The position numbers and the translations under genes were made by a program. The notes under the pieces were generated by a model, which was not told the origin of the DNA, made no database searches, and was given only the letters and a program-made list of their open reading frames with translations. 64,000 nucleotides of DNA from Margaritispora aquatica (lineage: Eukaryota; Ascomycota; Leotiomycetes; Helotiales; Discinellaceae), in contig VJWN01000009.1 in the NCBI GenBank assembly GCA_007644065.1, forward strand, positions 1 to 64,000, given 5' to 3'. Shown piece after piece: positions 38,053 through 40,877 of the stretch; within the stretch, counting starts at the first letter, position 1, and each line of letters starts with the position of its first letter.

Positions 38053-39890
38053 TCACCACCACCTAGCGCGACTAGCATACTCATATGCCTCCTCATCATG
38101 ATTCTTCCAAAGAGCTTGTGGGTCGAGATGCCCAACATGTTGACGACTTTCAGTCTTGCTACCAGTAAACTGACATATTCCAGCACCAGGAGTCCGAATT
38201 GCGCCGCAGAGCTTTGTGCCTTTGTTACTGAAGGTGAGGTCGTTCATATACTTGTCAGATCCAAGCTGAATTTCTCCTTCACCGGTTTCTATACCACGCC
38301 ACCTGTATCGCCATGTTGCCCTTCGAGCAGTCGGCTTATCAGTCGAGCTCAAGAAGAAGTCTTTCTCTTCATAAGTAGGGTTGTACTCGACTTCCGCATA
38401 ACCATCAATATCCCCATGCTTTCTTTTCCTGGAAACACTTGTTTTGTCCTCCGTTTTTGGTACTGGAATTGGTTTCTCAAACCTCATAATACCTTCAAAG
38501 ATCCGGAAATGAAACATGGCAAACATTTGTTGCCTCCCATTCTTGTTCTCAAGATGTATGTCCAACGTCAAAGAAGGGTCACCACCTTGGGGGGCCCACC
38601 CATTCTCTATGCTAGCACACGAAATCTCCCATGATCCTCTAACATCCCAAGAGGTTCCAGATTGATTATTTGACATGTAAGATATATTTGTGCTAATCTC
38701 TGGCTTCGAATCCCCATCCGAATCAGGACACGCTGTTTTGCGGGCAGTCTGCTTTGTCCGTGGTTTTTGGTCCATTTGAGATGCTGGCGAAGAAAAAGTT
38801 GCGGCGGACGCGTTTCTAGCAACATAGGGATCCATTGGGTTCTTGTTTCCATATATGGGAATGGCAGATTTACGTGCTGTTTGCTTTGGCTTCGGTGCTT
38901 CCTCGGAATCTGAATCCGAATCCGAATCCGAATCTGGATACGCTCTTTTACGAACAGTCTGCTTTAGCCATGGTTTTGCAGCTGATGAAGTTGAGACGGA
39001 GGTTTCGCCTGAAGTGCTTGACTGTGTTTTGTCGTAGGAATATGAATCATATTTCTGTGCATGTATTGGGACAGCCGACTTGCGTGCAGTTTGTATCGTT
39101 GCAAGGCCAGAAATTGCGTTTGATTTGCTTGGTGTTTTTGACTTAGCGGTAGGTTTTGGAGATTGCCTTGGGGAGGATTTTACAACATTTGTTGCGAAGC
39201 TCTCTCTTGATCGGGAAGCTTCCCGCTCAAGATCCCGCATCTGATTCCAGACAGCATCTCTTGTTCTTCCTATGATGACCCATCTGTCAGGTGAAGGCTT
39301 TTTCTGCTTGTCCATAGTGCGTCTACAGAGACAGCTTCCAAGCCCATTTCTTCCGCAGCAGTGGTTGCTCCAAGACGTTCTTTCAAAGGTAATTTGAGAA
39401 TGATAATGTCAAGATTTGGGGGTCTTCCAGTTCCTCCTTTCGGAAACTCCTCCAGTAAGTATCTCCTTGGGTTTGATCTCGCTTTGCTCTCTGCAGTTTT
39501 CAGCCCGCTCCATGAATTGTCTCTAGCTTGATGGTTTAGCTTTCTGAACTCCTTGTTCAATTCGGACTCAGTGGTCTTGAGCTCTGGTAACATTTTCTTT
39601 TTAGAATCTCTCATTCAAGCTTGAAGGTCTGGAATTGAGCCGGTCTGGTTCAGACCTCGAAATGCACATTGCGCTTTCCACCAAGACACACTCTTCCTTT
39701 CCTTCTGCTCCATTCCAGATTTATCATGCTTAGAAGGGATAAACTTCTCCCCTTGAGGATCATAGAAACATCCATCTTTAAGAAGACCTTCGCCAGCACA
39801 TGTATACTTCACGGCCTTGTACGTATGCTCCATTGGTGGGATGACGATAGGCTGAAGGTCGACCATTTTGTCCCAGATCTTGGGTCTCAA
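38053..39890 (-). pseudogene. Histone-H3-tail-mimic protein gene, interrupted by TGA and a frameshift
   Basis: Three abutting frames on one strand read as one gene. 39618-39890 begins MRPKIWDKMVDL and ends PDLQA at TGA (39615-39617). The same frame continues from 39614 (MRDSKKKMLPEL) to EAVSVDALWTSRK. At an A5 run (+ strand T5, 39299-39303) one extra A would fuse it to KPSPDRWVIIGRTRDAVWNQ in the 420-codon frame ending at 38053. That frame carries four H3-tail-like motifs: IQTARKSAVP, KQTVRKRAYP, KQTARKSAIP and RTKQTARKTA, the last matching H3 residues 2-9 exactly. Asp/Ser runs follow the second and fourth. The C-terminal about 200 residues (GSWEISC, LTLDIHL, FAMFHFRIFEGIMRF) look like a conserved beta-rich fungal domain of unknown role. 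The 420-codon part could still be expressed from its own ATG at 39315. Confidence 0.7.
38737..39096 (-). repeat. Four H3-tail-like coding repeats
   Basis: Within the 420-codon frame, the motifs fall at residues 74-83, 118-127, 144-153 and 186-195. Two types alternate: QTARKSA-V/I-PI and KQT-A/V-RK-R/T-A-Y/C-PDSD. The alternation suggests duplication of a two-motif unit. DNA between the motifs is much less similar. Confidence 0.85.
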
Positions 39891-40297: not shown

Positions 40298-40877
40298 ATG
40301 GTTGAATTGGTCGAAGTCGAGGACGAGTCCTTCGAGACCAAGCAAGCTGGACCAGAGGAGAACGACGATGATTATTACACCGACACCGGTAGGATTCTTG
40401 TCCTTGCAGTCTTTGACCGGGTACTAAAACCAAACAGATTCTGAGATCTCTTCTGATGGCGAAGATGAGATTCCCGAAGAAGAAACCCTGGCCGAACGAT
40501 TGCTTGCGCTTCGAGACATCATACCTCCCACAACAAGATCATACATTGCCGATACTGTTGACGCCACTACGAGTTGGGTGAAATCAGGCCTTTTGTTCAG
40601 CGGAAAGACACTCTGGGTTATCAGCACAAGTGCGCTTCTGTTAGGTGTACCTTGGGCATTGGCATTTGCGGAGGAGCAGCAAATGGTCGAGATGGAGAAG
40701 GAGATGCGTATGCGAGAGATCGGTGGAGAGGTAAGGCATCATTTCTGAAGGCTTCTGCTTTCGTCAACTCGATTATTCAGCTTGCTAACACTTGACTCGC
40801 AGCTTTTGAGCTCCTCCTCGACAGCCGCTGACTTGAACGCCCAGCTTGGTGCTCAACAAGGAAAGCCAGCTTTGTAG
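40298..40877 (+). CDS. TOM22: Mitochondrial import receptor subunit TOM22
   Basis: Three exons (40298-40388, 40438-40730, 40803-40877) encode 152 aa. The acidic cytosolic N-terminus (VEVEDESFET, later SDGEDEIPEEE) is the presequence-binding face of Tom22. The conserved ETLAERLLALRDIIPP leads to a tail-type membrane span around KTLWVISTSALLLGVPWALA, followed by a short intermembrane-space end. TOM22 is the central receptor and organiser of the TOM translocase in the outer membrane. Length matches fungal orthologs. Introns are 49 and 72 bp. The start is the only ATG giving the acidic leader. Confidence 0.95.

What the first reader, a model, noticed from the sequence alone, without database searches (positions are those of the whole stretch)
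38053..39890. A protein with four histone-H3-tail-like motifs, one identical to H3 residues 2-9
The 420-codon frame contains RTKQTARKTA, where RTKQTARK equals H3 residues 2-9, including both K4 and K9. Three looser versions (IQTARKSAVP, KQTVRKRAYP, KQTARKSAIP) are also present. They alternate as two types, each type separated by 30-45 residues, and sit in a disordered Ser/Asp-rich region before a folded domain. A non-histone protein with repeated H3-like ARK(S/T) sites could compete for or be modified by H3K4/H3K9 methyltransferases, demethylases, or chromodomain and PHD readers. Mimicry of this kind is known (for example G9a's own ARKT site), but I know of no described fungal family built this way.
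Basis: partly seen in the sequence, partly recalled or inferred. Interest (0 to 1): 0.9.

Follow-up and report, generated by a model that had tools for sequence, protein, structure and literature searches.

The report
Fungal protein carrying histone-tail copies
A family of fungal proteins, not histones themselves, carries one to four near-exact copies of the histone H3 tail in a floppy linker and has mostly kept them while the rest of the linker changed, which suggests that they bind proteins that normally read the histone tail.

Summary
Minus-strand frame 38053-39315 has four H3-tail-like motifs, one matching H3 R2-K9 exactly, arranged as two copies of a 70-residue two-motif unit. The window copy looks damaged upstream: relative to homologs it has an in-frame TGA (39617-39615) and a frame change near 39300. 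Intact homologs exist.

The family looks like SAP-like domain, R3H-like domain, disordered linker, beta-barrel. Of 154 homologs, 42 carry QTARK. On a C-domain tree, all 39 carriers placed fall in one 47-row clade whose named members are Leotiomycetes; the other 68 rows, including the fungus's own paralog, have none.

Across 16 pairs of related proteins the motif core is 88% identical, the C-domain 79%, the rest of the linker 63%. Conservation runs to K9 and drops at position 10. Published chromodomain contacts are Q5-R8 and S10; DIM-5 methyltransferase determinants are R8-G12. The motif therefore looks suited to a reader such as HP1 rather than to the H3K9 writer. Against this: the chromodomain contacts are largely main-chain, seven proteins have K9 changed to R, and some orthologs lost the core.

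Reading: tandem endogenous H3-tail mimicry in a predicted nuclear, nucleic-acid-binding protein. I have no binding, methylation or expression data.

The parts
38053..39315 (-). Open frame of 420 codons: end of the R3H-like domain, disordered linker with four H3-tail-like motifs, C-terminal beta-barrel domain
39079..39096 (-). Motif A1, IQTARK (in IQTARKSAVPI)
38947..38964 (-). Motif B1, KQTVRK (in KQTVRKRAYPDSD)
38869..38886 (-). Motif A2, KQTARK (in KQTARKSAIPI)
38737..38754 (-). Motif B2, KQTARK in RTKQTARKTACPDSD; RTKQTARK equals H3 residues R2-K9
   Evidence: own H3 gene
38677..39096 (-). Two tandem 70-residue units (A-B, A-B) carrying the four motifs
   Evidence: motif 15 of 20 identical between units, remainder 12 of 50
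39300..39866 (-). N-terminal part of the same gene (SAP-like and start of R3H-like domain), in another frame than the 420-codon frame, with one in-frame TGA (39617-39615)
   Evidence: tblastn of P0001, P0003, P0009: 60.8-68.8% identity, no gap at the TGA

Best explanation
This is a predicted nuclear, nucleic-acid-binding fungal protein whose disordered linker displays tandem copies of a short motif imitating the H3 tail from R2 to K9. Shown here by sequence and model: the family architecture, the confinement of the motif to one clade of the tree, and the retention of R-x-K-Q-T-A-R-K over the rest of the linker. Inferred: the motif is a docking site for an H3-tail reader, most likely the HP1 chromodomain once the K9-like lysine is methylated, so that the protein brings HP1 (or another QTARK reader) to DNA or RNA bound by its SAP/R3H-like domains, or holds it away from chromatin. 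Several motifs per protein would give avidity. I put about 0.7 on functional H3-tail mimicry in general and about 0.35-0.4 on the HP1-type chromodomain as the partner.
For: QTARK is in 42 of 154 homologs (39 of 62 from the first two searches, 3 of the 92 new in the third); in 39 of the 42 it lies before a recognised C-domain start, in the other 3 no start was found. On the C-domain tree (115 rows; 18 of the 133 rows given were dropped because no domain start was found) all 39 QTARK rows lie in one 47-row clade with 5 near-motif and 3 motif-free rows (SH-aLRT 85); 68 rows outside have none. Linker shuffles: 0 of 1000 in 37 of 47. Sixteen related pairs: core 137/156 identical, C-domain 2619/3298, rest of linker 1165/1847; the core is the higher in 15 of 16 pairs against the linker and in 12 of 16 against the C-domain. 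Among 44 best copies (3 of 47 proteins left out, match under 5/8): R2 40, T3 24, K4 37, Q5 43, T6 42, A7 44, R8 43, K9 41, then S10 only 28 and position 12 mixed. With a seed that does not select for K4, R8 or K9, of 104 QTA places in 53 of 155 proteins 83 have K4, 75 R8 and 88 K9. MPP8 chromodomain contacts: H3 Gln5, Thr6, Ala7, Arg8, plus Ser10; the authors' model has Gln5/Thr6 separating K9 from K27 (PMC3192050, passages). DIM-5 determinants lie elsewhere: R8A and G12P abolish, S10A and T11A greatly reduce, K4L and A7M have no significant effect in vitro (PMC3248561 section 7), although R2 and A7 substitutions do reduce DNA methylation in vivo (its abstract), which points downstream of DIM-5. 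The searches of the genome found an HP1-type chromodomain near the one chromo-shadow domain found, one Pre-SET methyltransferase and one VEFS-box/SUZ12 match. The linker model is disordered; a basic KKRKRE stretch in the C-domain insertion of the consensus looks like a nuclear localisation signal (read from the alignment; the window copy reads RKRKHG).
Against: K9 is R in ten copies in seven proteins (P0029, P0035, P0037, P0039, P0041, P0049, P0062), none of which also holds QTARK; these cannot be lysine-methylated there. Extra Botrytis copies read KQTAVK (R8 lost). P0015, P0026, P0042, P0044 and P0147 lack the core. The chromodomain contacts in MPP8, and by the authors' comparison in HP1 and Polycomb, are largely main-chain, so they explain side-chain conservation only in part. 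DIM-5 should be a poor writer of this motif, so who would methylate it is open. S10, a chromodomain hydrogen-bond partner, is S in only 28 of 44. The window copy looks broken. No expression, localisation, methylation or binding data. The selection argument rests on protein identities, not on codon rates.
Confidence: 0.4

Rival explanations
1. The motif binds an H3-tail enzyme (KMT1 or the PRC2 enzyme KMT6) unmodified, as a poor substrate or competitor, in the manner of EZHIP, so that the protein restrains a writer.
For: Positions 11-12 (A/V, P/F) resemble T11A/G12P changes that impair DIM-5. K9 to R occurs in ten copies in seven proteins. After ARK the usual S-A-P recalls H3 K27: in P0009, P0018 and P0023 the stretch RTKQTARKSAPSTG equals H3 R2-S10 overlapped with A25-G33. 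A VEFS-box/SUZ12 match is present, and L024 looks like an EZH2-type SET gene (read by eye from its cysteine-rich frame). EZHIP is a precedent (PMC12713659, abstract).
Against: The K-to-M change typical of EZHIP's H3K27M-like motif is absent at this position (no QTAxM in 154 homologs); K9 is kept in 88 of 104 QTA places. DIM-5 is indifferent to K4L and A7M in vitro, yet both positions are conserved.
Confidence: 0.2
2. The motif is a basic docking site for something other than an H3-tail reader or writer (importin, histone chaperone, nucleic acid); the H3 likeness is convergent or a by-product.
For: R2, K4, R8 and K9 keep the stretch basic, and K9 to R is tolerated in seven proteins. Chromodomain contacts are largely main-chain, so strict side-chain conservation may have another cause.
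Against: Q5, T6 and A7, which add no charge, are among the least variable positions (43, 42 and 44 of 44), which basic-stretch function alone would not explain. A separate KKRKRE stretch in the consensus already looks like a nuclear localisation signal.
Confidence: 0.25
3. The H3 likeness is chance or a low-complexity repeat without function.
For: Several orthologs have lost it. The genome-wide codon-pattern counts by themselves are near control.
Against: 0 of 1000 linker shuffles in 37 of 47 proteins; the core is more conserved than the rest of the linker in 15 of 16 pairs; retained in both tandem units; one clade on the tree.
Confidence: 0.06
4. The window's own copy is a decaying gene (or has assembly errors), so that nothing full-length is made in this fungus. 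This can hold together with any of the readings above.
For: In-frame TGA at 39617-39615 and a frame change near 39300, inside regions that align to three homologs without a gap at the stop.
Against: The downstream 420-codon frame is fully open and three of four motifs keep QTARK. The branch of this copy (0.42) is close to that of its nearest relative (0.34). A frame change can also be an assembly error.
Confidence: 0.6

Closest known systems
G9a/GLP automethylated histone mimic
   Same: An H3K9-like site in a non-histone chromatin protein; once methylated it binds HP1 (PMC9768651, passages)
   Different: Sits in the methyltransferase itself; here it is a protein with no enzyme domain found, 1-4 copies, a longer match (R2-K9) and poor residues at 10-12
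ATF7IP K16 / MPP8
   Same: An H3K9-like motif in a non-enzyme chromatin protein, trimethylated and read by a chromodomain (PMC6172828, passages)
   Different: Motif near the N-terminus of a vertebrate protein, written by G9a/GLP; the fungal protein has other domains and often several motifs
EZHIP, oncohistone mimic
   Same: A lineage-restricted H3 mimic with tandem repeats (PMC12713659, abstract)
   Different: H3K27M-like PRC2 inhibitor; here K9 is usually kept and the motif is K4-K9-like
SARS-CoV-2 ORF8 ARKS claim
   Same: An ARKS-based mimicry claim from a short motif
   Different: Disputed once localisation was checked (PMC10833455, passages); a caution for this case
SAP and R3H domain proteins
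   Same: N-terminal module resembles SAP then R3H
   Different: Only weak SAP matches (best E 0.005) in 11 of 42 members and no R3H row there; the C-terminal beta-barrel has no confident known relative

Membership tests
Histone-mimic proteins (H3K9-like short linear motif) | H3-like ARK core in a non-histone protein | tested here: met
   RTKQTARK 8/8 in the window; QTARK in 42 of 154 homologs
Histone-mimic proteins (H3K9-like short linear motif) | Motif lies in an accessible, disordered region | tested here: met
   pLDDT under 50 across most of the linker of P0005; a prediction only, on one homolog
Histone-mimic proteins (H3K9-like short linear motif) | Conserved above its surroundings | tested here: met
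   Core 137/156, rest of linker 1165/1847 identical in 16 pairs; losses in some orthologs
Histone-mimic proteins (H3K9-like short linear motif) | The lysine is modified, or the motif binds an H3-tail reader or writer | not testable with these tools
   Needs peptide binding or mass spectrometry
Core histone H3 | Histone fold | tested here: not met
   No histone family among Pfam matches of three window frames or among the 18 families listed for 42 family members
SAP domain proteins | Match above the Pfam gathering score | tested here: inconclusive
R3H domain proteins | Match above the Pfam gathering score | tested here: inconclusive
EZHIP-like methyltransferase inhibitors | Target lysine replaced by methionine | tested here: not met
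   No QTAxM in 154 homologs; K9 kept in 88 of 104 QTA places

The most novel reading that the evidence does not exclude
A Leotiomycete-type clade of fungi evolved a multivalent surrogate H3 tail: a DNA- or RNA-binding protein whose linker presents up to four H3 R2-K9 copies (in three members, of Sclerotinia, Ciborinia and Monilinia, also H3 A25-G33 in the same stretch), so that heterochromatin readers can be recruited to chosen sites or sequestered without a nucleosome. The loss of the DIM-5 determinants would be selected: a tail that is read but is not under the control of the usual H3K9 writer.
Probability: 0.3. Interest if true: 0.85.

Novelty: new variant of a known kind. Interest (0 to 1): 0.64.

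Why it matters
Endogenous histone mimics are known from some animal chromatin proteins, and mimicry by viruses has been described. A conserved, often tandem, fungal family with a near-perfect R2-K9 copy would be a natural experiment on which H3 residues matter to readers as opposed to writers. It would also suggest how heterochromatin proteins can be tethered or titrated by a non-histone protein. The prediction (read by the chromodomain, poorly written by KMT1) can be tested with synthetic peptides.

Tried and rejected

Limits of the counts: the shuffle table includes P0029, whose linker was cut wrongly to 15 residues. One search dropped 18 of 133 rows, among them motif carriers P0046, P0061 and P0137; P0013 was too short to be given. 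One search includes the pair P0045/P0047, whose motifs were aligned out of register (1/6). The QTA counts take the whole protein, so a few places (P0071, P0125, the first of P0141) are outside the linker motif. One search stopped with an index error in its second table; only its first table is used. Genome-family counts are lower bounds by the tool's own note.

Full report
What is there. The frame on the minus strand, 38053-39315, is open for 420 codons. It carries IQTARKSAVP, KQTVRKRAYP, KQTARKSAIP and RTKQTARKTACP; the last contains RTKQTARK, identical to residues R2-K9 of the fungus's own H3 (exon 1 encodes MARTKQTARK). The Q of the four motifs is at residues 74, 118, 144 and 188, so the two types repeat with a period of exactly 70 residues. 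Between the two 70-residue units, 15 of 20 motif positions are identical but only 12 of 50 others; 2 of 2000 shuffles of the non-motif residues reach 12, so the units do look duplicated.

The window copy is damaged. The part upstream of the frame (39866-39300) aligns to the first 184-191 residues of three homologs at 60.8-68.8% identity, with an in-frame TGA at 39617-39615 and no gap at that point. The homology then continues in the other frame from about 39306. No intron fits the stop, since aligned residues flank it on both sides without a gap. Either the gene is decaying or the assembly has errors. Intact homologs exist, so the family question does not depend on this copy.

The family. The first search found 53 homologs, an alignment search brought the total to 62, and a third from the motif-free side brought it to 154. 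Named members of the first two sets are mostly Leotiomycetes (Hyaloscypha, Lachnellula, Sclerotinia, Botrytis, Monilinia, Oculimacula, Rhynchosporium, Drepanopeziza); those added by the third are largely lichen-forming and other ascomycetes, with one Athelia (organism names; their classes recalled). AlphaFold2 on P0005 with 42 rows gives ordered N- and C-terminal parts and a disordered linker (pLDDT under 50 in most of 234-353). The N-terminal module resembles a SAP domain followed by an R3H domain: P0126 passes Pfam's SAP cut-off and P0134 its R3H cut-off, 11 of 42 members show a weak SAP match, and R3H and SAP structures appear among low-scoring structural matches. For most members, the window's included, these domain names are inferences. 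The C-terminal domain is a beta-barrel without a confident relative.

Where the motif occurs. QTARK is in 39 of the first 62 and in 3 of the other 92 proteins (P0107, P0137, P0142). In 39 of these 42 it lies before a recognised C-domain start; in P0046, P0061 and P0137 no start was found. Twenty-three of the first 62 lack it; some are fragments or motif-free outgroup proteins, others are relatives that have lost or changed the core. The C-domain alone gives a tree of 115 rows in which all 39 QTARK rows fall in one 47-row clade (SH-aLRT 85; the inner 44-row clade 97), together with 5 near-motif and 3 motif-free rows. The other 68 rows, among them the paralog in the same genome (L002), have none; the label needs 6 changes against a shuffled mean of 32.6. 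One gain followed by decay in some lineages is the simplest reading; the root is not inferred. Eighteen of the 133 rows given were dropped because no domain start was recognised, including motif carriers P0046, P0061 and P0137; P0013 was too short to be given.

More than chance, and conserved. In 37 of 47 clade members no shuffle of the linker out of 1000 reaches the observed match to RTKQTARK. The exceptions are P0141 (3), P0142 (1), P0147 (212), P0029 (904, linker cut wrongly), P0035 (19), P0037 (25), P0044 (9), P0015 (74), P0021 (31) and P0026 (243). In 16 pairs of related proteins the six-residue core is identical at 137 of 156 positions (88%), the C-terminal domain at 2619 of 3298 (79%), the rest of the linker at 1165 of 1847 (63%). 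The core is higher than the linker in 15 of 16 pairs and higher than the C-domain in 12 of 16 (core positions defined on the first member of each pair). In the whole genome the KQTARK codon pattern occurs three times, two of them here and one in the H3 gene; its control count is 2, so this alone proves nothing.

What the pattern of conservation says. Over 44 best copies (three of 47 proteins left out for a match under 5/8) the counts are R2 40, T3 24, K4 37, Q5 43, T6 42, A7 44, R8 43, K9 41; outside, residue 1 is P 21 or G 10, S10 28, position 11 A 24 or V 16, position 12 P 15, F 11 or L 6. Those copies were picked by likeness to H3, so I repeated the count with only QTA as seed: 104 places in 53 of 155 proteins, K4 83, R8 75, K9 88. 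Two published footprints can be laid over this. For the MPP8 chromodomain the contacts are Gln5, Thr6, Ala7, Arg8 and Ser10, largely through the main chain as the authors also say of HP1 and Polycomb, and in their model Gln5/Thr6 tell K9 from K27 (PMC3192050, passages). For the Neurospora H3K9 methyltransferase DIM-5, R8A and G12P abolish activity, S10A and T11A greatly reduce it, and K4L and A7M do nothing significant in vitro (PMC3248561, section 7 read), while R2 and A7 substitutions still reduce DNA methylation in vivo (its abstract). The motif keeps residues 5-9 almost without exception in these best copies and has not kept positions 10-12. It therefore looks made to be read rather than to be written by KMT1. 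The genome has the matching apparatus: an HP1-type gene with chromodomain and the one chromo-shadow domain found, one Pre-SET methyltransferase found and one VEFS-box match; L024 (C6), a SET gene with a cysteine-rich region before SET, looks like an EZH2-type enzyme (read by eye).

Mechanism. My best reading is a tethered surrogate H3 tail: the SAP/R3H-like module and the basic nuclear-signal-like stretch place the protein on nucleic acid in the nucleus, and the linker offers up to four H3-like sites to a reader, most likely HP1 when the K9-like lysine is methylated. Conservation, predicted disorder and confinement to one clade of the tree are shown. Nuclear location, methylation, partner and effect on heterochromatin are inferred.

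Results against it. Ten copies in seven proteins have K9 changed to R (P0029, P0035, P0037, P0039, P0041, P0049, P0062), and none of these proteins also holds QTARK. Extra Botrytis copies read KQTAVK. P0015, P0026, P0042, P0044 and P0147 lack the core. Main-chain contacts explain side-chain conservation only in part. If DIM-5 cannot write the mark well, another enzyme must, or the binding is to the unmodified tail; that is why the inhibitor rival and the non-reader docking rival together get nearly half the weight. In P0009, P0018 and P0023 the copy RTKQTARKSAPSTG runs H3 R2-S10 into H3 A25-G33, which leaves PRC2 open as writer or target. The published rebuttal of an ARKS claim for a viral protein (PMC10833455, passages) is a reminder that short motifs need localisation and binding data.

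Novelty. Histone mimicry by ARK-like sites is known (G9a, PMC9768651 passages; ATF7IP, PMC6172828 passages; EZHIP, PMC12713659 abstract; a screen for human H3K9-mimic candidates, PMC10611923 passages). In the rows shown by eight literature searches (several listings capped) I saw no fungal family built this way, within a library that lacks most subscription papers. I class it as a new variant of a known kind.

Noticed in passing
L003 1489-1518 (exon 1) and 1519-1700 (intron), G000:C34: The H3 gene has an intron directly after codon K9 (exon 1 = MARTKQTARK), the same point at which the mimic's likeness to H3 stops; an origin by exon capture is conceivable but not testable here.
   Followed up: partly
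window, about 40298-40877, + strand: TOM22 (PF04281, E 1.6e-43 for the frame 40428-40745) lies next to the gene in divergent orientation.
   Followed up: partly
L002 1498-2955, - strand (G000:C8): A paralog of the same architecture in this genome, with a short linker and no H3-like motif.
   Followed up: yes
P0009, P0018, P0023: RTKQTARKSAPSTG: H3 R2-S10 overlapped with H3 A25-G33 (K4/K9 context run into K27 context) in one stretch.
   Followed up: partly
P0030-P0034, P0054, P0055 (Botrytis): Additional copies read KQTAVKST or similar (KQTAIKSA in one): R8 lost, K9 and S10 kept, and in most T11 as in H3.
   Followed up: no
P0107, P0141, P0142: A long-branched sister group of unnamed proteins also carries the motif or a near copy, so the motif may be older than the Leotiomycetes-type clade proper.
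   Followed up: partly
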